Assembly (NCBI GenBank): GCA_016183775.1
Contig: JACPDY010000119.1
Span: 1-64,000, forward strand
Direction: 5' to 3'
DNA length: 64,000 bases
Source: Bacteroidota bacterium
GTDB taxonomy: Bacteria; Bacteroidota; Bacteroidia; JABDFU01
The position numbers were made by a program, and so were the translations under genes. Shown one piece after another: positions 27,053 to 48,080 of the stretch. The notes beneath the pieces are model-generated. The model did no database searches and was not told the origin of the DNA. It saw only the letters and a list, made by a program, of their open reading frames with translations. Positions within the stretch are counted from its first letter, which is position 1; each line of letters starts with the position of its first letter.

Positions 27053-30000
27053 TTGAAAAAAGTAATACTTATAGTTCATCTATTCTTATTCTGTGTTTTT
27101 GCAGGGCACTCTGCCGATCGCTATTGGGTGGGCGGTACAGGAGCTTGGAGCGATGTCTCGCATTGGTCGGTTGCGAATGGAGGGGTAGGTGGGGCTTCTG
27201 TTCCGACTTCACAGGATAATACATTTTTTACTTCTTTATCATTTCCCGGTTCAGGTCAAAGTGTTGCCATAGATGGGTTGGCCAGTTGCGCTGACATATA
27301 TTTTAATGGTATTCAAAGCAATACTTCTATAGAGGGATCCACTGGCAGTTTATTGTCAGTTTATGGTTCCATGAAACTTAATAAGGAGTTGCTGTATAAT
27401 TTTAAAGGTGACCTGGTCTTTAAATCCGAAACCGCTTCTTTCCTGAATTCCGCTGGCGTTGTCATAAAATCCGATATATATGTTGATCTGAATGGGGGAA
27501 CGCTAAACCTTACGGACAACTTAACAACTTCCCCGGCTTCAACCATTTATTTTAAAAGTGGAATTTTTTCCACAAGTAGTAAAACTGTTAACTGTGGTTC
27601 ATTTATAGCCCAGGGAAATTTATCGCGTTCTTTGCAATTGAATAAATCTTCAATGATTATTCACAATAATTGGTTGCTAAATGAAGCGGATAATTTAACA
27701 TTAGAGGCTTCAAAAGCGCAAGTTGTTCTTGTTAATAAGTTAAGCACTTCCAATTTCCAATCACAAAAATTTCCTTATGGGAAAGTAAGAACAATGCAAG
27801 CGATGGCATTTTCAGTTGTTATAACTGAAATAGTTCTTAATAAATGTGCCGGTGATTGCAAGAGTAAAATGGTAGCAACAGTATCTGGTGGCACGGGACC
27901 ATATAATTATACATGGGTTTTACCTGATGGGAGCACTGTAATACATGGACCAACAGCATCTACAACCGATACGCTTACGGGTGTTTGTGAAGGTAAATTC
28001 TATTCGATTTTTGCCGAAGATACTTTTGATGGTACAATTGTGTCGGATTCAAAGCAGGCTCAATCTTTCTCTCCTATTGGTATTGCCCCAACTTCCACTG
28101 CAACTAAGTGCTTTGGCTCATGTGATGGACGCGCTACAGCCATATCAGTTGGAGGTACAAATCCAGTAACATTTGTTTGGTCAAATGCGTTTACCGGAGC
28201 TATCAATAATAATATTTGTGCAGGAACTTATACTGTTACTGCTACAGATGCGAATGGTTGTACAGCATCAAATACCACAACAGTAAATCAGCCAACTGTT
28301 TTGGCTTTGGTTGGGGGATCAACAAATGTTACGTGTTTTGGCTTATGTAACGGAACTGCTTCTGTAAGCGCATCTGGCGGAACAGTCCCGTATACATATA
28401 GCTGGAGTAACTCATCAGCGGCAACAGGTTTGGCGGGCCTATGTCCTGCAACATATACGGTAACAGTTACCGATAAAAATGCCTGTTCAAAAACCTATTC
28501 CCCCACAATTACTCAACCGGCTGCCGCCTTAACTGCATCAACGGTAAAAGTAAATGTAACCTGCTTCAGTAAATGCGATGGCTCCACAACTATTACACCG
28601 GTTGGCGGTACTATCCCATATACCTATTCATGGTCAAATGGCGCAACAAACGCCGCTTTAACATTGTTATGTGCCGCTAATTATACATGTACTGTTACCG
28701 ATGCGAATGGTTGTACCACAACGTCATCGGCTGCAATTACAGAACCTACAGCCCTGGTAACTGCCCCAACAGGTACAAATGTTACCTGTTTTGGTGCTTG
28801 TAATGGAACTGTCAATGCAAATCCTTCCGGAGGTTCTTTACCTTATACCTATTCTTGGGGTCCCGGTGGTGCAACCGCTGTAACCGCCGCTTCGCTATGT
28901 CCCGCTACATATACAGTCACACTTACCGATTCAAAAGGATGTACAAGTACTTCAACCGTAGCAATAACAGAACCGGGAGTCCTGGCGGCAAATGCCACTA
29001 AAACGGATATTACCTGTAACTCTTTATGTAATGGCAGTGTAGGTGCGACACCTTCCGGCGGGACAACTCCTTTTTCCTTTGCATGGTCCAACGGATCAAC
29101 AGCCGCTACCCAGTTTGGCCTGTGTGTGGGCGGGTTTACCGTAACTGTTATAGATGCTAACTCCTGTACCAAAACAGGAGCGGTAAGCGTTAACCAGCCT
29201 GCTACTCTCAGTATAACAAGGTTGATTACAAATGCAAGCTGTAACGGGATATGTGATGGTGCTATAAACACAACTACCAATGGAGGAACGACCCCTTATA
29301 CCTATGCATGGTCATCGGGCCAGGTTACCGCAAATTTAAGCGCGCTCTGTGATGCGGGCTATACAGTCACTGTCACCGACGCGAATAATTGTACCGCTAC
29401 AACATCGGCTACAATAACAGAACCCGTTGCGGTAACTGCATCTATCGCCACAACACCGGTATCGTGTGATCTTAGTTGTAATGCAACAGCAGCGGCTTCC
29501 GCCGGCGGAGGTACTGCCCCCTATACCTATTTGTGGAGTACACTGGCTACCACAGTATCAATAAACGGGTTATGTGCAGCGTCTTATACGGTTACTATTA
29601 CGGATTCCAAAAACTGTTCGGCCACTTCAACCACTACAATTACACAACCTGCGCCGTTAACCATTTCTCTTACGCCAACTAATGTAAGCTGTTCGGGTTT
29701 ATGTAATGGCTCTGTTTCCGCTACTCCCGGAGGTGGAACTACCGCCTATACTTATTCCTGGTCAAGTGGTGGAACGGCTCAGACTATTTCAGCGTTATGT
29801 GTCGGGGGATACACGCTGACACTTACCGATGCCAATGGTTGTACGGCAACCTCCAATGTTACAATAACTGCACCGAGTGTAGTGTCGGTTGTTATTAATG
29901 CTTCAAATATGACTTGTAGCGGTTTGTGTAATGGCAGTGCGACAGCGAATCCTGGCGGAGGTACGCCGGCATATACTTATAACTGGAGCACCGGATCCAC

Positions 30001-33000
30001 TTCTCAAACCATATCTGCCTTGTGCCAGGCTACATATACGGTTACTGTTACGGACAATGGTGGCTGTCAGACAACACAAACTGTTACCATCACTCAACCA
30101 ACCGCTTTAAATGCTTCCTTTACTTCAAGCGCCTCCAGCTGCGGTGTTTGTAATGGAACAGGAACGGCTAATCCTTCAGGCGGTTCTCCCGGCTACAATT
30201 ATACCTGGTCCGATTCGCAATCAACTCCTACGGCGGTAGGATTATGTGTGGGAACATATACGGTTACTGTTAGTGACATTAATGCATGTACGGCTACCGG
30301 AACAGTGGCCGTTGCTCCAACAGTGCTGATCACTGTAACAACATCCTCCATAAATTTAAGCTGTTTTGGTTCGTGTGATGGAATAGCCACCGCCAATGCA
30401 ATAGGCGGTGTTTTACCATACACTTATAACTGGAGTAACACCGAAACAACACAGAGCGTAACCGGATTGTGTTCGGGCTCATATACTGTAACGGTTACTG
30501 ACGCTGCCGCCTGTTCCAGTACTTCAACCGCGGTGTTCCTTGACCCTGCTGTTATTGTACCCAATGTGTCAAAAACAGATGCGACCTGCAACGGCATTTG
30601 TGATGGTACCGCGGTATCCGCTCCTTCCGGAGGTGCCGGAGGGTATTCGTATACATGGTCTAATGCAGCAACCTCAGCAACTGTAAGTGCGCTTTGTGCG
30701 GCAACATATACGGTAACTGTTACCGATGCCAATGCGTGTACGCAAACATCAACGGTAACCATAACACAGCCTTCCTCTCTCAATGACAATGAAGTGGTGG
30801 CTACAGCAACCTGCGGAAACTGTGATGGTACAATCGGGGTGAGCCCATCAGGAGGAAGCGCTGCTTATACATATGCATGGGCCGGCCCGGGCGCGTTTTC
30901 GGCCACCAGTCAAAATGTTAGTGGATTATGTATAGGAACTTATACTCTTACCCTCACCGCAGGAGGCACATGCCAATCAATATTTAATTATTCGATAAGC
31001 AATACGGCGGGTCCTAGTTTGACTAAAGTGCGGACCAATACTTTATGTAACGGAAACTGTGATGGTACGGCAACTGTGACACCTGCCGGCACCCCCGGCT
31101 TTACATATAACTGGAGTACGGGATCAACCGCGCAAACTGTGAATGGCCTGTGTGCAGCATCATATACATTGTCGGTTACGGATGGTATTGGTTGTGTAAC
31201 AGTTGATACACTGCTTATAAAGCAGCCTTCAAAGATATCTCCTAACCAGGTAAGCGCTGATATTACCTGCGGAGGTGCAGCAGATGGCGCTATCATTCTT
31301 GTTCCCGCTGGAGGTACTCCTGTGTATACATTTAGCTGGAGTAATACGGCAACGACCTCAACAATAACCAATTTAGCCCCCGGACCTTATACATTTACAG
31401 TTACAGATGCAAACGGCTGTGATTCGATAAACACAGTTACTATAACCGAACCGTCCGTATTGTCAGCCAGCACAATTGCAACCGATGTAACCTGTAAGGG
31501 AGCATGTAATGGCGGTGCGTTTGCTGCAGAAGCAGGAGGTACATCGCCTTACGATTACAGCTGGAGCAGTGGAGCGCTCCTGAACATAGCCATTAATCTA
31601 TGCCCTAATACATATACGGTTACGGTTACAGATGCGAATAATTGCACGGCCACTTCCACTGCCGTAGTAACGGAGCCGGCATTGGCGTTAACCGCTGCAA
31701 CAGGTGAAACAGATGTGTCATGTAATGGTGGTTCTGATGGTACAACATTTGTCAATGCAAGCGGGGGTACTCCAGGGTACAGTTATACCTGGGTGCCGGG
31801 CGGACAAACCGGGGCTACAGCCACTGCATTATTCGCTGGCTCATACAATGTAACTGTAACCGACGCGAACGGGTGTACAACTGTAGGAGGAATTGTTGTC
31901 AATCAGCCTGCGGTATTGTCATTCACGGTTAACCAGGTTGATGTGAGCTGCAATTCGGCCTGTGATGGTACGGCAAATGTGACAGTGGCCGGCGGAACGG
32001 CACCATTCAACTACCTGTGGAGTAATGCCGCGACCGGACAAACGGTAACGGGCTTGTGCCTGGGAAGCTATACTGTAACAGCGACAGACAGTAAGGGATG
32101 CACGAATTCAAAAATAGTTACCATTACCGAGCCCTCTACATTATTGGCTAATGTTACGGGTACAGATCCAAGTTGTTTAAGCGCAACAAGTGGTTCTGCA
32201 ACATCTGCTCCTGCAGGTGGAACAGTGCCCTATACATATAATTGGAGTAACGGAGCACTGACTCAAACTATCAATTCTTTGGCTGCAGGATCATATACTG
32301 TAACAGTTACTGACAGTAATGGTTGTACTGATACACAATCGGTAACACTTATACCTCCTGTTCCGATCACTATTGTACAGGCGGTGTCGGATGCGAATTG
32401 CGGTGCTTGCGATGGAACGATTGATGTCACCGTTTCCGGTGGAACACCCGGCTATTCGTATTTATGGAATTCAGGGGCTACCGCACCGACACTATCAGCT
32501 TTGTGTGCCGGGAATTATTCGCTTACAATTACGGATGTAAATACATGCACTTCCGCCTTTGTTATCGCGGTTAATAATACGGGAGGTCCTACGGGAGAGA
32601 CCGTTGTTACTACTGACAATATTTGCAGCACCGATTGTAACGGTACTGTAACTGTTACACCGATCGGAGGAACTACACCTTATACCTATTTGTGGACTGA
32701 TGTTGCAAACACTTCAAATGCAAGGACCGGCTTGTGCGTCGGATCCTATACCCTGGTAGTTACCGATGCGAATGGTTGCATAAGAAATTCACCGGTTACG
32801 ATCACTTCACCTGCACCGCTTGTCATTTCAGTGTCTCTTACAAATGAAACCTGCAGCGGCAAATGTGATGGAGTAATAACGCTTTCAGCCGCAGGGGGCG
32901 GGGGTGGTTATGTATATTCATGGAATTCGGGTGCGACAGGTGCTGTTCAGTCTTCTTTGTGTGCCGGAACTTACTCGGTCACTCTTACGGATGCCAATTC

Positions 33001-36000
33001 ATGCACTGCTACCTCGGTCGTTGTGGTCGGGACATCGCTGGTGTTAACCGCTTCTGTGACTCAGACCGATCCGCTTTGTAATGCATTGTGTACCGGAACT
33101 GCTGATGTAGCTATGGGTGGTGGTACAAGTCCATATGTATTTACCTGGAGTAACGGTGCTGCAGCATCGTCTTCGTCAGGCCTTTGTGCAAACGCGTATA
33201 CGGTAAGCGTCAGTGATGCGAATGGGTGTAACATTACTAAAGTAGTTACCATAACAGAGCCTGCGGCGATCATAACAACACCGGTTGTTATAACTGCAAC
33301 CTGCGGTGTTTGTAACGGACAGATCAGCGTAGCCCCTTCCGGTGGAACAGGCACATATTCGTACACATGGGGAACAGGAGCAACTGCTCCAACCATTTCC
33401 GGACTTTGTGCAGGGGTATATGGGTTAGATATCGGCGATGCGAATGGATGTACCCAATCGTTCAATATTCCTCTTAATAATACCAATGGCCCATCAGCTT
33501 CTACTATTGTTACAACTGATGTCACCTGCTTTGGTTCGAATGATGGTGCCGCAAATGTAACGCCCAATGGCGGTACACCTCCATATACATATTTATGGAT
33601 ATCAACCGGACAAACGATAAACACTGTTACAGGTTTGGCGGGAGGAGTTAATCTGGTGCAGATAACTGACGCCAACGGATGTATCCGTACAGATACTGCG
33701 AATATTGTTTCACCGACGCAGATTGTTCCGAACCAGGCAGTGACCAATGCGACATGCGGCTTAAGTGATGGACAGATCGTTGTTGCTCCTACAGGCGGAG
33801 CCGGAACATACACCTACTCATGGAGCGGAGGGTTCACAACTGCGACGATCACCGGCTTAAGTGCCGGAACGTATGATCTCACGATTACCGACGCTTCTTC
33901 CTGTACGCAAACAGCATCATTCCCTGTCAGCAATAATAATGCACCGGCGTTAACACTGGCCATACAAGACCTGGGATGTAATAGTATTTGTAACGGCAGT
34001 ACAGTGGCGACACCATCAGGCGGACTTGCACCTTATGTAATGAGCTGGAGTACCGGTGCTACAGGCAATACAGCAAGTTCTCTTTGTGCGGGAACCTATA
34101 CCGTATCAGTTACTGATGCGAATGCTTGCATGACCATTAGTACAGTTGTTATCTCCGAACCTGCTGCTTTAACATTAACGGCTCCCGCTACATCACAGGC
34201 TTCCTGCTCCGCTGCCTGTAACGGAACAGCTGCCGCTTTGCCAATAGGTGGTACCCTGCCATATTCGTATTCATGGAGCATGGGTCCGACAGCCGCTACG
34301 GTTGCTAATTTATGTTCAGGCACCTATTTTATTGTGGTTACAGATGCAAATGGCTGTAACGCAACACAGGCAATAACAATTGTGCCATCAGCGGCACCGT
34401 TTACAGTTACACCGACTTTAACTAATGCCACCTGTGGCCTTTGTGATGGACAAGCCGCTGTAATTGCCAGTGGCGGCACCCTGCCTTATAATTATTTATG
34501 GAGCAATGGTGCCACGGGAGCTACTGTTAACTCATTGTGTGCCGCAGTGTATTCGATAGATCTGACAGACGCAAACGGATGCTCTGCAAGTTTCTTTATT
34601 CCGATAAGTAATACCGGCGGACCAACAGGCTCAGGTAAATCCGTGACAAACATTTTGTGTAATGGTCAATGTAGCGGCGGAGCTTCCGTTGCTCCTGTTG
34701 GAGGAACCGCACCTTTTACTTATTTATGGCTTCCATCTGGCGATACCGGACAAACTATATCTAATCTCTGTTCGGGAACGGGCTTTGTTCAGATCACAGA
34801 TGCCAATGGATGTATCTTAACCGATACAGTTGACATTACCGAACCAATGGCTTTTGCAACGAACGAAAATATTACTCAGCCAACGGCCTGCAGCGTGAAC
34901 GACGGGGCTATTACGTTAAGTCCTTCCGGCGGTACTGCTCCATACACATACACATGGAGTAACGCGGCAACATCTGCGACTCAGACAAATCTTGGAGCCG
35001 GACTGTATACAGTGACAATTACAGATGCCGCAGGCTGTGCCCAATCTACGGTCGTTGCAATAAATAATGTTTCAGCACCTGTTCTTGCCGGAACGTCCGG
35101 GAACGTATCCTGTGCCGGCAGTTGCGATGGATACGCTGCAATATCCGCCATGGGCGGAGTTTTGCCATATACATACTTATGGAATAATACTCCGCCTTCA
35201 TCAATTGATACTGCCATAGGGTTGTGCCAGGGGACCTATTTTGTTCAGGTCACCGATGCGGCAGGCTGTCTGATCACTTCGTCCGTAACCATTACTGAGC
35301 CGAGTCCGTTAATGTTGAATTCGCCAGTAAAAACAGATGCAAGCTGTATAGCAGTTTGTAATGGTTCGGCAACAGTCCTTCCTGCCGGCGGGACCTTGCC
35401 TTATGTATACAGCTGGAGCAACGCTTCAACTTCATCGGGTATTGGTAGTTTATGTGTAGGCAATTATTCTGTTACTGTTACAGATGTTGCAGGTTGTTCC
35501 CTAGTGCAGGTAATATCGGTTGATGAAAATTTAACACCAATAGTTATTACAAGTGCTGTAACAAACCCGACCTGTGGCATATGCAATGGAACGGCCTCTG
35601 TGAACGTTGTGGGTGGGAATGCGCCATTCTCATACCTATGGAGTAATGGTTCAACAAGCAGTTCAACTGACAGCCTTTGTGCAGGAGTATATTCTATTGA
35701 TATTGCTGATGGAGTTGGTTGTCAGTCAAGTTTCAGTTTACCGGTAAGTAATACAGGCGCGCCAACTGCTTCGGGTAGAGTAGTAACTGATGCAACCTGT
35801 TTTGGGTCCTGCAATGGATCTGCTTCTGTTAGCCCGATTGGCGGAACACTGCCTTATACTTATAGCTGGCTTCCTTCCGGACAAACTGCCGCTACTGCGT
35901 CAGGATTATGTGCAGGTTTGGGATTTGTTGAGGTCGCCGATTCAAATGGCTGCATACTGGTCGATTCAATTCTTGTCGGATCGCCTTCCCAGATCAGTAT

Positions 36001-37672
36001 TGCGGGAGTAACTACTGATCCGACTTCATGTAATGTAAACGATGGGTCCATTGCGCTTACCGTTTCAGGGGGAGCAGGTACTTATACATATGCATGGAGT
36101 AATTCAGGTACAGGGACTACCCAGATTAATATTGGCGGGGGAACTTATGGTGTTACTGTAACTGATGCATCAGGATGTACACAAACGACGGTAATTTCAT
36201 TGAATGATAAATTCGCCCCGGTGCTTTCCGATAGTTCTGTAAACGTAAGTTGCTTTGGAAAATGTGATGGTAAAGCGATTGTAAGGGCCAATGGAGGTAC
36301 GCAGCCATATACTTACTCATGGAGCGATACCCCGTCATCGGTAATTGATACCGCCAAGACGTTATGTGCAGGCACCTATTTCGTTCAGGTAACCGATAAT
36401 GTAGGGTGTAAGATCTCCTCATCTGTTACAATAACCGAACCATCCGTACTTAACTTATCTATTTCAGGTACAACGAAGGAAAAATGTATTGGCAGTTGTG
36501 ATGGCAGCATTACAGCAGTCCCTTCAGGTGGTTTATTCCCATACATGTTCTCCTGGTCTTCCTTTACCGGAACAACTTCGGTTGCAAGTCCTTTGTGTAA
36601 AGGCCAATATTCTTTTACGTTAACTGATGCAAATGGCTGCACGGTTCAGCATACGGATAGCGTGCAGTCGCCTGCGCCAATGGTTGTTGTTAAAACTCCT
36701 GTTGATGCGAACTGTAACAATACCAATGATGGTTCTGTGACCATTTCAGTGACTGGTGGTGTGGGAACATATACATATAACTGGAAAGGGCCTGGTGCGT
36801 TTACATCCGGCAGCCAGAATCTTGCTGGGCTATATGCCGGTTCCTATCCGGTAACAATAACCGATGCTAATGGATGTCAGAAACTGGATACAGCGGCTGT
36901 GAACGCAACAATTAATGTTATTGCTAAAGCAGGTAATGACACTTCGTTCTGCCTGGGAGGTTCGATTATTCTTAGCGGGGATAGTTCTCTGCCGATAACC
37001 GGAACCACCTATCAATGGCTGCAAATGCCAGCATTAACTAATATCGGAAACGATTCAACTGTAACCCTTACCCCGCCAGCCGGTACATCCAACTACATGT
37101 TAGTGGCAATAAACGGTGTTTGTTCGGATACAGATACTGTTGTAGTGTCAGCAAATCCTTTGCCGGTTGTGGATGCCGGAGCCGACAAGACCATATTCTC
37201 TTTGCAAAGCACAATGATTGGAGGCGCTCCGACTTCTATTGCTTCAGGAGCTTCATTTAGCTGGACTCCAGGTAAGGAATTAACCGATAGCACAGCTGCG
37301 AATCCTGAAGCGTCACCGCTTACTACGACACTTTACAAAGTTGTTGTCAGAGATGCGAATGGTTGTGTTGCAAGTGATACTGTACGGTTGACCGTGTTGC
37401 CCGAGATCGTTTTTAACAATGGTATAACACCAAATGGCGATGGTAAAAACGAAACATGGATAATTGATAATATACAGAAATTCCCGAAATGTGTAGTTGA
37501 AGTATATAACCGCTGGGGAGATCTTTTGTTCAGCTCAACCGGGTATGGAACACCCTGGGATGGCAGGTATAATGGCAAGGATCTGCCCGTAGGAACATAC
37601 TATTATGTGATAAAATTAAATGATCCATTGTTCCCTGATGCGTTCACCGGACCTATAACAATTATGCGTTAA
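27053..37672 (+). CDS. SprB-like giant repeat adhesin with type B T9SS sorting domain, 3539 aa
   Basis: The start is TTG, followed by a signal peptide (1-20). A 240-residue N-terminal region begins RYWVGGTGAWSDVSHWS, common in large Bacteroidota surface proteins. Forty SprB-type repeats follow (27838-36900), each about 75 residues with consensus C-x2-3-C-[DN]-G ... GGtxPYtYxWS ... LCxgxYTVTVTDANGC. Two Ig/PKD-like units come next (AGNDTSFC..., DAGADKTIF...), and a CHU_C domain ends the protein: NNGITPNGDGKNETW, YNRWGDLLFSS, WDGRYNGKDLPVGTYYYVI. SprB in Flavobacterium is the mobile surface adhesin of gliding. The stop overlaps the start of a PorP/SprF gene. Thirty-two repeats keep both inner cysteines and eight lack both. 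Confidence 0.95.
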   Translation: MKKVILIVHLFLFCVFAGHSADRYWVGGTGAWSDVSHWSVANGGVGGASVPTSQDNTFFTSLSFPGSGQSVAIDGLASCADIYFNGIQSNTSIEGSTGSLLSVYGSMKLNKELLYNFKGDLVFKSETASFLNSAGVVIKSDIYVDLNGGTLNLTDNLTTSPASTIYFKSGIFSTSSKTVNCGSFIAQGNLSRSLQLNKSSMIIHNNWLLNEADNLTLEASKAQVVLVNKLSTSNFQSQKFPYGKVRTMQAMAFSVVITEIVLNKCAGDCKSKMVATVSGGTGPYNYTWVLPDGSTVIHGPTASTTDTLTGVCEGKFYSIFAEDTFDGTIVSDSKQAQSFSPIGIAPTSTATKCFGSCDGRATAISVGGTNPVTFVWSNAFTGAINNNICAGTYTVTATDANGCTASNTTTVNQPTVLALVGGSTNVTCFGLCNGTASVSASGGTVPYTYSWSNSSAATGLAGLCPATYTVTVTDKNACSKTYSPTITQPAAALTASTVKVNVTCFSKCDGSTTITPVGGTIPYTYSWSNGATNAALTLLCAANYTCTVTDANGCTTTSSAAITEPTALVTAPTGTNVTCFGACNGTVNANPSGGSLPYTYSWGPGGATAVTAASLCPATYTVTLTDSKGCTSTSTVAITEPGVLAANATKTDITCNSLCNGSVGATPSGGTTPFSFAWSNGSTAATQFGLCVGGFTVTVIDANSCTKTGAVSVNQPATLSITRLITNASCNGICDGAINTTTNGGTTPYTYAWSSGQVTANLSALCDAGYTVTVTDANNCTATTSATITEPVAVTASIATTPVSCDLSCNATAAASAGGGTAPYTYLWSTLATTVSINGLCAASYTVTITDSKNCSATSTTTITQPAPLTISLTPTNVSCSGLCNGSVSATPGGGTTAYTYSWSSGGTAQTISALCVGGYTLTLTDANGCTATSNVTITAPSVVSVVINASNMTCSGLCNGSATANPGGGTPAYTYNWSTGSTSQTISALCQATYTVTVTDNGGCQTTQTVTITQPTALNASFTSSASSCGVCNGTGTANPSGGSPGYNYTWSDSQSTPTAVGLCVGTYTVTVSDINACTATGTVAVAPTVLITVTTSSINLSCFGSCDGIATANAIGGVLPYTYNWSNTETTQSVTGLCSGSYTVTVTDAAACSSTSTAVFLDPAVIVPNVSKTDATCNGICDGTAVSAPSGGAGGYSYTWSNAATSATVSALCAATYTVTVTDANACTQTSTVTITQPSSLNDNEVVATATCGNCDGTIGVSPSGGSAAYTYAWAGPGAFSATSQNVSGLCIGTYTLTLTAGGTCQSIFNYSISNTAGPSLTKVRTNTLCNGNCDGTATVTPAGTPGFTYNWSTGSTAQTVNGLCAASYTLSVTDGIGCVTVDTLLIKQPSKISPNQVSADITCGGAADGAIILVPAGGTPVYTFSWSNTATTSTITNLAPGPYTFTVTDANGCDSINTVTITEPSVLSASTIATDVTCKGACNGGAFAAEAGGTSPYDYSWSSGALLNIAINLCPNTYTVTVTDANNCTATSTAVVTEPALALTAATGETDVSCNGGSDGTTFVNASGGTPGYSYTWVPGGQTGATATALFAGSYNVTVTDANGCTTVGGIVVNQPAVLSFTVNQVDVSCNSACDGTANVTVAGGTAPFNYLWSNAATGQTVTGLCLGSYTVTATDSKGCTNSKIVTITEPSTLLANVTGTDPSCLSATSGSATSAPAGGTVPYTYNWSNGALTQTINSLAAGSYTVTVTDSNGCTDTQSVTLIPPVPITIVQAVSDANCGACDGTIDVTVSGGTPGYSYLWNSGATAPTLSALCAGNYSLTITDVNTCTSAFVIAVNNTGGPTGETVVTTDNICSTDCNGTVTVTPIGGTTPYTYLWTDVANTSNARTGLCVGSYTLVVTDANGCIRNSPVTITSPAPLVISVSLTNETCSGKCDGVITLSAAGGGGGYVYSWNSGATGAVQSSLCAGTYSVTLTDANSCTATSVVVVGTSLVLTASVTQTDPLCNALCTGTADVAMGGGTSPYVFTWSNGAAASSSSGLCANAYTVSVSDANGCNITKVVTITEPAAIITTPVVITATCGVCNGQISVAPSGGTGTYSYTWGTGATAPTISGLCAGVYGLDIGDANGCTQSFNIPLNNTNGPSASTIVTTDVTCFGSNDGAANVTPNGGTPPYTYLWISTGQTINTVTGLAGGVNLVQITDANGCIRTDTANIVSPTQIVPNQAVTNATCGLSDGQIVVAPTGGAGTYTYSWSGGFTTATITGLSAGTYDLTITDASSCTQTASFPVSNNNAPALTLAIQDLGCNSICNGSTVATPSGGLAPYVMSWSTGATGNTASSLCAGTYTVSVTDANACMTISTVVISEPAALTLTAPATSQASCSAACNGTAAALPIGGTLPYSYSWSMGPTAATVANLCSGTYFIVVTDANGCNATQAITIVPSAAPFTVTPTLTNATCGLCDGQAAVIASGGTLPYNYLWSNGATGATVNSLCAAVYSIDLTDANGCSASFFIPISNTGGPTGSGKSVTNILCNGQCSGGASVAPVGGTAPFTYLWLPSGDTGQTISNLCSGTGFVQITDANGCILTDTVDITEPMAFATNENITQPTACSVNDGAITLSPSGGTAPYTYTWSNAATSATQTNLGAGLYTVTITDAAGCAQSTVVAINNVSAPVLAGTSGNVSCAGSCDGYAAISAMGGVLPYTYLWNNTPPSSIDTAIGLCQGTYFVQVTDAAGCLITSSVTITEPSPLMLNSPVKTDASCIAVCNGSATVLPAGGTLPYVYSWSNASTSSGIGSLCVGNYSVTVTDVAGCSLVQVISVDENLTPIVITSAVTNPTCGICNGTASVNVVGGNAPFSYLWSNGSTSSSTDSLCAGVYSIDIADGVGCQSSFSLPVSNTGAPTASGRVVTDATCFGSCNGSASVSPIGGTLPYTYSWLPSGQTAATASGLCAGLGFVEVADSNGCILVDSILVGSPSQISIAGVTTDPTSCNVNDGSIALTVSGGAGTYTYAWSNSGTGTTQINIGGGTYGVTVTDASGCTQTTVISLNDKFAPVLSDSSVNVSCFGKCDGKAIVRANGGTQPYTYSWSDTPSSVIDTAKTLCAGTYFVQVTDNVGCKISSSVTITEPSVLNLSISGTTKEKCIGSCDGSITAVPSGGLFPYMFSWSSFTGTTSVASPLCKGQYSFTLTDANGCTVQHTDSVQSPAPMVVVKTPVDANCNNTNDGSVTISVTGGVGTYTYNWKGPGAFTSGSQNLAGLYAGSYPVTITDANGCQKLDTAAVNATINVIAKAGNDTSFCLGGSIILSGDSSLPITGTTYQWLQMPALTNIGNDSTVTLTPPAGTSNYMLVAINGVCSDTDTVVVSANPLPVVDAGADKTIFSLQSTMIGGAPTSIASGASFSWTPGKELTDSTAANPEASPLTTTLYKVVVRDANGCVASDTVRLTVLPEIVFNNGITPNGDGKNETWIIDNIQKFPKCVVEVYNRWGDLLFSSTGYGTPWDGRYNGKDLPVGTYYYVIKLNDPLFPDAFTGPITIMR
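27838..36900 (+). repeat. Array of 40 SprB repeats with a five-unit higher-order period
   Basis: Forty units averaging about 226 bp. Units 25-29, 30-34 and 35-39 are related position by position, giving a longer period of 1131-1140 bp: the matching ACCTG[CT]GG sites lie at 33299, 34430 and 35570. This indicates growth by duplication of five-unit blocks, now diverged at the DNA level. Confidence 0.85.
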
Positions 37673-38592
37673 TGATTAATAATTATCTAATGAGGCGGTT
37701 AATACATATCCTGATAGTGGCACTTGTTTTGTCAGGTGTATCAAAGGCTCAGCAATTGCCGCAGTTCACTAATTACATGATCAATGATTATGTAATTAAC
37801 CCTGCCCTTAGCGGAACAAAAGATTATTTTGAGGTAAAGTCAAACAACCGCTATCAATGGGTTGGAATTACCGATGCCCCCCGCACATTTACGCTAAGCG
37901 CCAATGGTCCGTATAAATCAAAGAATATGGGTTACGGAGGGTATGTATTTACTGATATCACCGGACCTACACGCAGAATAGGTTTGACATTAAGCTACGC
38001 CTACCATTTAAAACTGAATGAAGCCTATAAGCTGTCGCTGGGTTTAAATGGTGGTTTGTTGCAATTTTCAGTTGATGGTTCAAAAATAACTTTGCGTGAC
38101 CAGAATGACCTTGCTTTAAGTGGTGGTATGCAATCAGTCATTGTACCTGATTTTGGTTTTGGAGCCATGCTGCGTCACGATAAATTTTACGCTGGAGTCT
38201 CTGTTCCTCAGCTTTATCAAAGCAAACTTAAATTTTTTGATTATACTACATCAACACTCAGCAAACTGGCTACTCACTTTTATGCAATGGGCGGGTATAG
38301 GTACGATCTGAATGATAAAATCCGTCTGGAGCCAAGTGTATTGATAAAATATGTTTCTCCTGCTCCGGTTAAGGTAGATATTGGTGTACGGGCAATTTAC
38401 AAAGAAATGATATGGGCAGGTGTGGCTTACCGCACTAAAGATGCCATCACAGCACTTGTCGGTTATACCTATCAAAACTACCTGACGTTTGCTTATGCGT
38501 ACGATATGACAACTACCAACCTGCGCAATTATTCAACAGGCACACATGAAATAATGTTCGGTCTGCGATTTAATAATAAGCCCAAGACTTAA
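37672..38592 (+). CDS. PorP/SprF family outer-membrane protein
   Basis: 306 residues. The family signature follows the signal peptide: QQLPQFTNYMINDYVINPALSGTKDYFEV... RYQWVGITDAPRTFTLSANGP, then a beta-barrel ending HEIMFGLRF. PorP/SprF proteins pair with type B sorting-domain cargo and are thought to anchor or help export it. The ATG at 37672 shares a base with the adhesin stop (TAATG), implying translational coupling; an in-frame ATG at 37690 gives a more typical signal peptide (MRRLIHILIVALVLSGVSKA). It is almost certainly dedicated to the giant adhesin. Confidence 0.95.
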   Translation: MINNYLMRRLIHILIVALVLSGVSKAQQLPQFTNYMINDYVINPALSGTKDYFEVKSNNRYQWVGITDAPRTFTLSANGPYKSKNMGYGGYVFTDITGPTRRIGLTLSYAYHLKLNEAYKLSLGLNGGLLQFSVDGSKITLRDQNDLALSGGMQSVIVPDFGFGAMLRHDKFYAGVSVPQLYQSKLKFFDYTTSTLSKLATHFYAMGGYRYDLNDKIRLEPSVLIKYVSPAPVKVDIGVRAIYKEMIWAGVAYRTKDAITALVGYTYQNYLTFAYAYDMTTTNLRNYSTGTHEIMFGLRFNNKPKT

Positions 38593-45279: not shown

Positions 45280-46641
45280 ATGAAAAAAATTACTTTTTGT
45301 ACTTTAATGTTTGCCGGGGTAGCTTTATTTGCTCAGCATGCTCAGCAGGACAACACCGTAAGTCCTGCTAAAAACGGATTAGAGCTTGTTGATTGGAAAC
45401 CAAGTGGCAGGGCTAATAAAATAAATAACAATTCAATACGTTCGGGCGTATTTCATTATCAGTTAGTATGGGCTGCTGCTAAGGAGTGGTGGAACATAAA
45501 TGTTGATAATGCAACGGCCTCGAATTTCGCCGTATACCGAAATGTTGTTTTTATGGATTCAACTGCTGTAACAAGCAGCAGTACCGGAAATGACAATCCA
45601 TTTAATATGCGTGCAGGAGTTGTTGTTGACCCCAAATCTCCTTATTACGATTCTACTTTCACCGGTCCTTTTCTTACTGCCTCTGATGCATATCAGGTTG
45701 ATACAGTTTTGATCGATGGAAACTATCAGAGACGTGTTAGTGTTGATGATACAATGATAGTGGAATTATCATGGGGTGATACTGCCAACTATACTACCTG
45801 GACACAGGTTTATAATTCAGGGAAAAACCAGTATTGGGTTTGTCCTAAACTTAACTCATCTGCATCACATGGGAATGTGTCCCACTTAACTGCCGCTGCA
45901 GGTAATCGTGTAATCGTTAAGCGTGTTATGACTGCAGCTGATACGATCACCGTTGGTAACCCTTTTGCAGGTGCAATTGTTGTAGTAATGCCAAATGGAG
46001 GCGTGAAGATCCCTGCAGGTAATCCTGTAGCGGTTACATACACTTTTGTTCCGGGAAGCTACACCATAGGTGATGTTGTGTTCCAGTATAGCAACCCGAC
46101 AACTCCGGCTACAAAAAATGGTTTTGGTGGTTACCTGGCTGGCCAGAAAGATTATAACGGTACAAATGGGCTGAGTTATTATTATGATAGAGACTTGTCA
46201 GGAAATCCTGCAAAAACAAAGAACAGCAGCATGGATTACTACACAAACGGAAGGTATGGAAAATATACCGGTGGTCAGGCATTTGCAAATTCCTGCATGT
46301 ATCCTGGTGCTGATTTTTGCTGGTACATAGAAACTATCATTTCTAACCAGGTGGTGGGAATTGATGAGCACAAATCAAACAATTTACGTGTTGGACAAAA
46401 CATTCCTAATCCGTTCAATGATAATACATATATTGGTTATGAGCTGATTGAAAGTGCAAATGTTACACTTGAAGTGTTTGACATTACCGGTAAAAAAGTA
46501 CAAGCCATTAACGAAGGCAAAAAATTTGCCGGTAACTATAACATTCAATTTAACGGAAGCAATCTTCAGGCTGGTGTATACTTCTATACATTAACTGCAG
46601 GAGAGACTCGTGTTACTAAACGCATGACACTTGTTAGATAA
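45280..46641 (+). CDS. Secreted T9SS type A protein, paralogue 1
   Basis: 453 residues: signal peptide (1-21), a body of about 340 residues of unknown family, and a type A sorting domain (VGQNIPNPFNDNTYIGYEL... LEVFDITGKKVQAINEG... AGVYFYTLTAGETRVTKRM). The body shares many blocks with the next gene: LxWKP start, RSGVFHYQL, VVDPKSPYYD, DAYQVDTVLI, SHGNVSHLTAAAGNRVIVKRVMTAADTI, and a late DYYTNGRYGKYTG. It should be exported by T9SS and released or attached to the surface. The function of the body is unknown. A strong terminator follows. Confidence 0.88.
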   Translation: MKKITFCTLMFAGVALFAQHAQQDNTVSPAKNGLELVDWKPSGRANKINNNSIRSGVFHYQLVWAAAKEWWNINVDNATASNFAVYRNVVFMDSTAVTSSSTGNDNPFNMRAGVVVDPKSPYYDSTFTGPFLTASDAYQVDTVLIDGNYQRRVSVDDTMIVELSWGDTANYTTWTQVYNSGKNQYWVCPKLNSSASHGNVSHLTAAAGNRVIVKRVMTAADTITVGNPFAGAIVVVMPNGGVKIPAGNPVAVTYTFVPGSYTIGDVVFQYSNPTTPATKNGFGGYLAGQKDYNGTNGLSYYYDRDLSGNPAKTKNSSMDYYTNGRYGKYTGGQAFANSCMYPGADFCWYIETIISNQVVGIDEHKSNNLRVGQNIPNPFNDNTYIGYELIESANVTLEVFDITGKKVQAINEGKKFAGNYNIQFNGSNLQAGVYFYTLTAGETRVTKRMTLVR

Positions 46642-46715: not shown

Positions 46716-48080
46716 TTGAAGTTTAATTTTGTCAGCAATACACTATTTAGCATGATTTTATTGAGTATCAACACATTGGCTCAATATAATACCATTGAAA
46801 CACAACCGGTGCAATCCGGCCCAATGCTGAATTGGAAACCCAATTATGATATTAATGCGCGCAATGTTAAAGCACTCCAATCAGGGGTTTTTCATTATGA
46901 GCTTAACTGGCAATATGCAAAAGCAGAATATGAAAAGGGTGTAAATAATGCTCCTGTTGGGGATTTTACTTATTACGGGAATGTATTATTTATGGACTCA
47001 ACCGCTAAATACAGTAATAGTTCTTCTACTGCAAATGTATTTAATATACGTGCGGGAGTTATTGTGGATCCTAAATCGCCTTATTATAGCCCTGGTCCTG
47101 CTTTTGATGAAGTCCCTTTCCTCACCCCCACTGATGCTTATCAGGTCGATTCAATTTTAATCGTTGGTTTTTATCAAAGAAGGACTTCTGTAAATGATAC
47201 GTTATTACTTGAGATATGCTGGGCTGATACGTTAAATACAAGCGTGTGGCAAACTGTTTTGAGTTCAATATCGCCAAGAACCTGGCTAACGCCTTTTGTT
47301 AATTCTTCCACCAGTCATGGTGACGTATCGCACTTAACCTGTCCGGCAACTAACCGTATATTTCTTAAAAAGGTATTAACTGCAGCCGACACGATCACTG
47401 TTGGTAATGCTTATGCAAACGTACATGTATTTGTAATGCCTGCAGGCGGCCTTAAAATTCCGGCAAATAATATTTTGGCGGTTACCTACTCATTCATTCC
47501 GGGGACTGATTATACTGCAGGTGATGTGGTATACCAATATTCCAATCCGATGAGTCCTGCAACAAAAAATGGTTTCGCGGGATCTTTGAGAGGTGGAAAA
47601 GCCAATTCTGCCTATCTGTATGATAAAAGTACACAGGCTACCAATCCTGCTAAAACAAAAAACTCAGGAGTTGACTACTATCATGTTGGAAGATATGGAA
47701 AGTACACAGGTACAGGAGCGTATTTAAATTCATGTATGCGTCCAAGTGCTGACTTTGCATGGAATGTAAGCGTAATTATCTCAAATCAGCCTGTAGGAAT
47801 TAATGAAAAGCAGGCTAACAATATCCGCGTTGGACAAAATACCCCGAACCCTTTTAATGATAACACATACATTAGCTACGAACTTATCGAAGGCGCTAAT
47901 GTAGCACTCGAAGTGTTTGACATTACAGGGAAAAAAATTCAGACTATTAATGAAGGCAGACAGTTTGCCGGAAGCCATAATATTCAATTTAATGGCACTA
48001 ACCTGGAGGCTGGTGTATATTTCTATACATTGACTGCAGGTGAAACCCGTGTTACCAAACGGATGACACTTGTTAAATAA
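46716..48080 (+). CDS. Secreted T9SS type A protein, paralogue 2
   Basis: 454 residues with the same layout as its neighbour: signal peptide (1-22, ending TLAQ), a homologous body (SGVFHYELNW, DPKSPYYSPGP, DAYQVDSILIVGFYQRRTS, SHGDVSHLTCPATNRIFLKKVLTAADTITVG), and a type A sorting domain almost identical in protein sequence (FYTLTAGETRVTKRMTLV). The two genes are a tandem duplication. Many codons in the shared C-terminus differ only at silent positions, so conservation there reflects selection rather than recent copying. The start is 18 nt after the T-run of the preceding terminator, so the promoter may overlap the upstream gene end. Confidence 0.88.
   Translation: MKFNFVSNTLFSMILLSINTLAQYNTIETQPVQSGPMLNWKPNYDINARNVKALQSGVFHYELNWQYAKAEYEKGVNNAPVGDFTYYGNVLFMDSTAKYSNSSSTANVFNIRAGVIVDPKSPYYSPGPAFDEVPFLTPTDAYQVDSILIVGFYQRRTSVNDTLLLEICWADTLNTSVWQTVLSSISPRTWLTPFVNSSTSHGDVSHLTCPATNRIFLKKVLTAADTITVGNAYANVHVFVMPAGGLKIPANNILAVTYSFIPGTDYTAGDVVYQYSNPMSPATKNGFAGSLRGGKANSAYLYDKSTQATNPAKTKNSGVDYYHVGRYGKYTGTGAYLNSCMRPSADFAWNVSVIISNQPVGINEKQANNIRVGQNTPNPFNDNTYISYELIEGANVALEVFDITGKKIQTINEGRQFAGSHNIQFNGTNLEAGVYFYTLTAGETRVTKRMTLVK

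What the first reader, a model, noticed from the sequence alone, without database searches (positions are those of the whole stretch)
27838..36900. Perfect covariation of two cysteines across 40 SprB repeats implies a disulfide in each unit
In 32 of the 40 repeats I counted, the second Cys of C-x2-3-C-[DN]-G is present and a Cys is also present in the LC-x-G-x-Y segment about 45 residues later. In the other eight (units 16, 18, 20, 26, 27, 32, 37, 40; for example CGGAADG with NLAPG, CNGGSDG with LFAGS, CNVNDG with NIGGG) both are missing. No unit has one without the other. The outer pair (first Cys and the Cys of DANGC) is kept in nearly all units. The simplest explanation is an optional disulfide between the inner pair and a second, more constant bond for the outer pair. 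I do not know of a description of this for SprB repeats.
Basis: partly seen in the sequence, partly recalled or inferred. Interest (0 to 1): 0.75.

Follow-up and report, generated by a model that had tools for sequence, protein, structure and literature searches.

The report
Disulfide-stapled SprB-repeat adhesin

Summary
In the 3,539-aa T9SS protein at 27053-37672, 32 of 40 repeats have both inner Cys (C2, C3) and the same eight named units have neither. It holds across Bacteroidota: of 2,703 aligned units, 397 have both, 2,246 neither and 60 only one at strict columns. All but one of those 60 are alignment shifts or unrelated domains. C2-C3 is the strongest coevolving column pair in the repeat, and its neighbours form an antiparallel strand ladder. 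The intra-repeat C2-C3 disulfide is well supported.

The outer pair is misread. C1 and C4 show almost no association within a unit. C1 of unit n goes with C4 of unit n+1: odds ratio 81 against 1.4, repeated in 60 further regions at 48 against 2.4. In neighbour-unit direct coupling it ranks 1 of 4,072 inter-unit pairs; the same-unit pair ranks 556 of 1,830. In the window, unit 1 lacks C4 and the last Ig-like domain (42) lacks C1, so 41 staggered bonds plus 32 inner ones use 146 of 151 Cys, none twice.

Proposed: an overlapping disulfide ladder that stiffens and mechanically protects the stalk. Sulfur-sulfur distances could not be measured.

The parts
27053..37672 (+). T9SS type B surface protein, 3,539 aa (TTG start, signal peptide, N-terminal domain, 40 SprB repeats, two further Ig/PKD-like domains, type B CTD)
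   Evidence: PF13573 E 4e-256 and CHU_C; TIGR04131
27824..36925 (+). array of 40 SprB/Ig-like units (aa 258-3291), mostly 74-78 aa each
27845..27847 (+). C1 of unit 1 (Cys265); proposed partner C4 of unit 2 (Cys403). Unit 1 itself has no C4, as expected for the first member of an inter-unit chain
31247..31471 (+). unit 16, no inner pair
31700..31927 (+). unit 18, no inner pair
32153..32374 (+). unit 20, no inner pair
33506..33730 (+). unit 26, no inner pair
33731..33955 (+). unit 27, no inner pair
34865..35089 (+). unit 32, no inner pair
36005..36229 (+). unit 37, no inner pair
36692..36925 (+). unit 40, no inner pair; its C1 (Cys3221) is proposed to bond Cys3357 of domain 41
36920..37165 (+). 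domain 41, PKD/Ig-like, with C1-like Cys3300 and C4-like Cys3357 (boundaries approximate)
   Evidence: sequence; pairing
37166..37411 (+). domain 42, PKD/Ig-like, with C4-like Cys3438 and no C1: the closing end of the chain (boundaries approximate)
37412..37669 (+). type B C-terminal T9SS sorting domain
37672..38592 (+). PorP/SprF-family outer membrane partner; contains no Cys, so no twin-Cys C-tail

Best explanation
The protein is a long surface stalk of Ig-like repeats held by two disulfide systems. (1) In most units C2 (start of strand B) and C3 (just after strand E) form an optional bond across neighbouring antiparallel strands of the same unit. (2) C1 (A-B loop) of unit n bonds C4 (F-G loop) of unit n+1, so every junction is stapled and consecutive staples overlap along the chain. 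The covalent route C4(n)-25 residues-C1(n+1)-S-S-C4(n+2) advances two units without passing through any sandwich core. The stalk should therefore be stiff and almost inextensible, with its domains shielded from pulling force. Shown here: the covariation, its direction, its replication and the chain ends. Inferred: that the bonds form (the genome has two VKOR-family proteins with CxxC motifs), and the mechanical role.
For: Inner pair: 32/8 with no exception in the window; 397/2,246/57/3 family-wide, with the 60 singles resolved one by one. C2-C3 is the top coupling, more than twice the next, and pairs 12-41, 15-37, 14-38 lie in the same antiparallel register. Units 15-17 model at pLDDT 97.4 with C13 and C44 flanking strands 15-19 and 39-43. 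Outer pair: C1(n) x C4(n+1) 2244/25/42/38, OR 81, p 9e-44; same unit OR 1.4, p 0.23. Many discordant junctions carry a displaced or linker Cys. Within-protein permutation: 38 double absences against mean 10.6, max 19. Replication OR 48. DCA rank 1 in the first, replication and combined sets. Array ends: first units lack C4 in 18% (C1 in 4-9%), last units lack C1 in 18-24% (C4 in 7-10%), internal units 2-3%. The window balances: 41 + 32 bonds, no Cys reused. V4-I64 coupling (parallel A-G) puts C1 and C4 of one unit at opposite poles. Two VKOR matches.
Against: No coordinates could be read from the model, so no sulfur-sulfur distance was measured. No biochemistry was available. In the replication set the reverse pairing C4(n)-C1(n+1) also reached OR 13 and the same-unit pair OR 2.4 (p 0.04). 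The reverse signal comes largely from one strictly alternating array, which itself fits the forward rule at every junction, from HYR domains caught by the model, and from arrays with compensating linker Cys. The staggered hypothesis was formed on part of the first set. Cys546 (unit 4) and Cys3480 (CTD) have no partner.
Confidence: 0.85

Rival explanations
1. One reading: both bonds lie inside each unit, C2-C3 optional and C1-C4 constant.
For: C1 and C4 are both present in nearly all units.
Against: Almost no within-unit association of C1 and C4 (OR 1.4, p 0.23; replication OR 2.4, p 0.04) against OR 81 and 48 across the junction. Same-unit coupling ranks 556 of 1,830 while the staggered pair ranks 1 of 4,072. 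Units lacking C1 are often followed by units lacking C4 (L121, L176, L154, L251). It leaves Cys265 and Cys3438 of the window unpaired.
Confidence: 0.07
2. The covariation is only shared descent: a four-Cys and a two-Cys subfamily of units shuffled by duplication, with no bond.
For: Units are related by duplication; the four-Cys state clusters on the unit tree (223 changes against 427 when shuffled).
Against: Gains and losses of C2 and C3 coincide on 207 of 225 changed branches; 79 proteins mix both kinds. The signal is specific to the strand-paired columns and stands far above all other pairs after weighting. Within-protein permutation rejects it.
Confidence: 0.04
3. The four Cys of a unit bind a metal such as zinc or an Fe-S cluster.
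For: Four Cys per unit; a CxxxC motif.
Against: Two-Cys units keep C1 and C4 but drop C2 and C3 together; C2 and C3 also persist without C1 or C4 (0111, 1110, 0110 units). The two pairs vary independently. The protein is exported, where disulfides are expected (inference).
Confidence: 0.02

Closest known systems
SprB repeat (PF13573) proteins, including the F. johnsoniae gliding adhesin SprB
   Same: Same repeat family, T9SS type B sorting domain, PorP/SprF partner downstream
   Different: No description of a disulfide pattern in these repeats was found in the open library. The partner here has no Cys and so lacks the SprF twin-Cys tail that bonds GldK in F. johnsoniae (PMC12635249), so a gliding role is not indicated.
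GhpA, grappling hook protein of Aureispira sp. (PDB 9flw, 9flp, 9fls, 9flx)
   Same: Best structural match of the modelled three-unit segment (Foldseek E 6.5e-9, TM 0.59); its domains also carry C1- and C4-like Cys
   Different: Only 17-21% identity over the aligned segments; whether its Cys are bonded within or between domains could not be read here.
Cross-linked Gram-positive Ig-like adhesins, e.g. the 51-domain Mobiluncus mulieris adhesin
   Same: Giant tandem Ig-like stalk with a covalent cross-link in each domain (PMC10619420)
   Different: There the links are within a domain (ester, isopeptide, disulfide) and the interdomain linker is described as flexible; here the constant bond joins neighbouring domains.
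RTX adhesin extender domains
   Same: Tandem beta-sandwich repeats whose junctions are rigidified (abstract of PMC7493085, listed)
   Different: Rigidified by Ca2+ in the linkers rather than by a disulfide between loops of neighbouring domains.

Membership tests
SprB repeat, PF13573 | Profile match over the gathering score | tested here: met
   827 bits, 34 stretches
T9SS type B substrate | TIGR04131 / CHU_C C-terminal domain | tested here: met
   67.4 bits against cut-off 35; CHU_C 83 bits
SprB-type gliding adhesin system | PorP/SprF-family partner next to the adhesin gene | tested here: met
   TIGR03519 288.6 bits, gene directly downstream
SprB-type gliding adhesin system | Twin-Cys C-tail of SprF that bonds GldK (PMC12635249) | tested here: not met
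   Partner sequence has no Cys
SprB-type gliding adhesin system | Moves along the cell and drives gliding | not testable with these tools
   needs live-cell tracking
Disulfide-bonded Ig-like repeat | Paired columns coevolve as Cys-Cys and lie in contact register | tested here: met
Disulfide-bonded Ig-like repeat | Sulfur-sulfur distance near 2 A in a structure | not testable with these tools
   model coordinates cannot be read; structures of relatives not readable
Disulfide-bonded Ig-like repeat | An envelope oxidation pathway in the genome | tested here: met
   two VKOR-family matches over the curated cut-off, with CSIC and CTWC motifs; no DsbA match

The most novel reading that the evidence does not exclude
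SprB/PKD-like arrays throughout Bacteroidota are overlapping disulfide ladders in which every repeat is stapled to its neighbour, so that very many giant T9SS surface proteins are covalently inextensible rods, oxidised by a VKOR pathway in the periplasm before or during T9SS export.
Probability: 0.6. Interest if true: 0.82.

Novelty: new variant of a known kind. Interest (0 to 1): 0.72.

Why it matters
SprB repeats are common in Bacteroidota (279 of 345 genomes of the class matched), and nothing was found in the open library on how their stalks carry force. A constant bond between neighbouring repeats with overlapping spans is a different solution from isopeptide or ester cross-links within domains or Ca2+ in linkers. 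It gives sharp predictions for existing cryo-EM maps, peptide mapping and force spectroscopy, and it would tie T9SS adhesin assembly to an oxidative folding pathway.

Tried and rejected
Sequence search of the PDB with two units found only chance fibronectin hits; a profile of 16 units found weak relatives (RemZ, GhpA, phage decoration proteins). The second structure job (units 40-42, single sequence) gave pLDDT 33 and is not used. A crude Cys parity count at junctions (2,258 even, 87 odd) is quoted with care, because most odd cases are windowing errors (C2 of PKD-like units counted as C1; C1 counted as linker). Metal binding was considered and set aside because the two Cys pairs vary independently.

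Full report
What is there. The window holds one 3,539-aa open frame at 27053-37672 (+), with a signal peptide, an N-terminal domain, 40 SprB repeats (PF13573), two more Ig/PKD-like domains and a type B T9SS sorting domain; a PorP/SprF partner follows directly. Anchoring on the conserved Trp gives exactly 40 units.

The observation. Unit 1 is the one without C4. That looked like a blemish but turned out to matter.

Is it general? I collected SprB-repeat proteins from the same genome, from other Bacteroidota genomes and from 80 named contigs, and aligned units with one profile. At strict alignment columns 397 of 2,703 units have C2 and C3, 2,246 have neither, 57 only C2 and 3 only C3. I read the 60 exceptions. 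Forty-nine of the C2-only units carry a Cys a few residues from the C3 column, mostly PKD-like units of the form SPCPVSTTTY. The other eight are units whose lone N-terminal Cys was placed at C2, or non-SprB domains. Of the three C3-only units, two have a displaced CxC or CxxC motif and one (L143 unit 1533) is a real exception, with an extra Cys after the Trp. A further unit with a displaced C3-like Cys and no C2 is L082 unit 734. The pattern also occurs in PKD-like domains related to the SprB repeat.

Structure of the inner pair. Mean-field direct coupling and corrected mutual information both put C2-C3 first among all column pairs, at 24.5 and 18.7 standard deviations, with or without the window's own genome. 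The pairs 12-41, 14-38 and 15-37 beside it define an antiparallel ladder in which columns 10 and 42 face each other. AlphaFold2 on units 15-17 with 64 homologous triples gave mean pLDDT 97.4; the two Cys of unit 15 (model residues 13 and 44) flank strands 15-19 and 39-43, the strands that pair in this ladder. Model coordinates cannot be read with these tools, so the distance itself remains unmeasured.

Phylogeny. On a FastTree of units built without the two columns, 207 of 225 branches with a change alter both columns together (159 joint gains, 48 joint losses). The tree is weak, since units are about 73 columns long. Within-protein permutation is a cleaner control: 2,643 concordant units against a maximum of 2,347 in 500 permutations.

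The outer pair. While reading exceptions I saw that units lacking C1 were directly followed by units lacking C4 (L121, L176, L154). Tested on all adjacent units, C1(n) against C4(n+1) gives 2,244 both, 25 C1 only, 42 C4 only and 38 neither: odds ratio 81, p 9e-44. Within a unit the odds ratio is 1.4 (p 0.23), and in the reverse direction 1.8 (p 0.11). Most of the 67 discordant junctions contain a Cys moved a few residues, or one in the linker exactly where C1 or C4 is missing. Permuting within proteins gives at most 19 double absences against 38 seen. Fisher p-values here ignore shared ancestry; the permutations and the contrast between directions are the meaningful controls.

Coupling across the junction. 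On concatenated neighbours, C1(n)-C4(n+1) is the strongest inter-unit pair (22 standard deviations) while C1-C4 in the same unit ranks 751st among intra-unit pairs. Supporting inter-unit pairs (5-54, 7-54, 6-23, 8-20/21) describe an A-B loop of unit n packing on the F-G and B-C loops of unit n+1. The coupling V4-I64 indicates that strand A runs alongside strand G. That places C1 and C4 of one unit at opposite poles, too far apart for a bond (inference).

Replication. I fetched 60 further regions (40 of them from genomes not used before) and ran the same profile and code. C2/C3: 201 both, 917 neither, 21 and 1 single. C1(n)/C4(n+1): 1,026, 20, 16, 15 (OR 48, p 3e-16). Same unit: OR 2.4, p 0.04. 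The reverse direction reached OR 13, which I traced to one strictly alternating array (L251: 0001 1000 0001 1000, which obeys the forward rule at every junction), HYR domains caught by the profile (L241), and a few arrays with compensating linker Cys. Within-protein permutation of the forward rule: 15 observed, mean 3.3, max 9; three of the 15 are the HYR units. With L241 removed, C1(n)-C4(n+1) again ranks first of 4,072 inter-unit pairs. In the combined set it ranks first and the same-unit pair 556th of 1,830. In the first set without the flavobacterial alternating arrays it ranks second, behind the same-column pair W29-W29.

Array ends. A staggered chain predicts that a first unit needs no C4 and a last unit no C1. 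First units lack C4 in 18% of arrays (C1 in 4-9%); last units lack C1 in 18-24% (C4 in 7-10%); internal units lack either in 2-3%.

The window as a whole. Unit 1 has C1 but no C4. After unit 40 come domain 41 (Cys3300, Cys3357) and domain 42 (Cys3438, no C1). Staggered pairing then gives 41 junction bonds, all with both partners present, plus 32 inner bonds: 146 of 151 Cys, none used twice. Left over are Cys14 (signal peptide), 79 and 181 (N-terminal domain), 546 (unit 4) and 3480 (CTD). The intra-unit reading would leave Cys265 and Cys3438 without partners.

A third pair. Columns 47 and 61 (strands F and G) also behave as an optional Cys pair: 42 both, 6 single, 2,637 neither, and 10 both, 3 single, 1,310 neither in the replication set. 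It is absent from the window.

Mechanism. Shown: covariation, its direction, its replication, the array ends. Inferred: oxidation and mechanics. The genome encodes two VKOR-family proteins with CxxC motifs and no DsbA match. With staples intact, the shortest covalent route over two units is about 25 residues plus one S-S, roughly 9-10 nm extended, close to the assumed folded length of two Ig-like domains (7-9 nm). The stalk should therefore hardly lengthen under load, and the core of each unit would be bypassed by force. The inner bond adds local stability and is dispensable, hence optional.

Comparison with what is known. The nearest solved fold is GhpA of Aureispira. A Mobiluncus giant adhesin has covalent links inside domains, with a flexible interdomain linker (PMC10619420). 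RTX adhesins stiffen linkers with Ca2+ (PMC7493085 abstract). No paper in the open library was found that describes Cys in SprB repeats; subscription papers and preprints were not searched. The SprF twin-Cys bond to GldK (PMC12635249) is a different disulfide, and the SprF-like partner here has no Cys.

Verdict. Observation confirmed; inner bond supported; outer bond reassigned from within a unit to between neighbours. The missing piece is a measured distance or a peptide map.

Noticed in passing
repeat columns 47 and 61 (strands F and G), e.g. L179 TYCVTVTD..C..xxC: A third optional Cys pair across strands F and G in SprB repeats of other proteins (42 both, 6 single, 2,637 neither); absent from the window.
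   Followed up: partly
window 37672-38592: The PorP/SprF partner has no cysteine, so it lacks the twin-Cys C-tail that in F. johnsoniae bonds SprF to GldK; this adhesin may be anchored but not carried on the gliding track.
   Followed up: partly
G000 (own genome): Very rich in SprB-repeat proteins: about 1,200 first-look candidates for PF13573 and many long frames on separate contigs in a 4.5 Mb assembly.
   Followed up: no
L031-L070, PKD-like units of the form CPGSC...SPCP..TTTY: These own-genome units have C1, C2, C3 but no C4; in many of the arrays a linker Cys precedes them, as if it replaces the missing junction partner.
   Followed up: partly
L179, L190, L187, L167, L126, L106: Units that lost C1 (often of the form DETxxGANDG) are followed by a linker Cys while the next unit keeps C4: apparent relocation of the bond.
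   Followed up: partly
window 45280-46641 and 46716-48080: Two neighbouring frames with near-identical C-termini (GVYFYTLTAGETRVTKRMTLV), likely T9SS type A substrates from a tandem duplication.
   Followed up: no
L191 1006-2388: A VKOR domain fused between membrane segments in a 461-aa frame, with a CSIC motif.
   Followed up: no
window aa 546 and 3480: Two Cys of the protein without an assigned partner: an extra Cys in strand F of unit 4 and one in the type B CTD.
   Followed up: no
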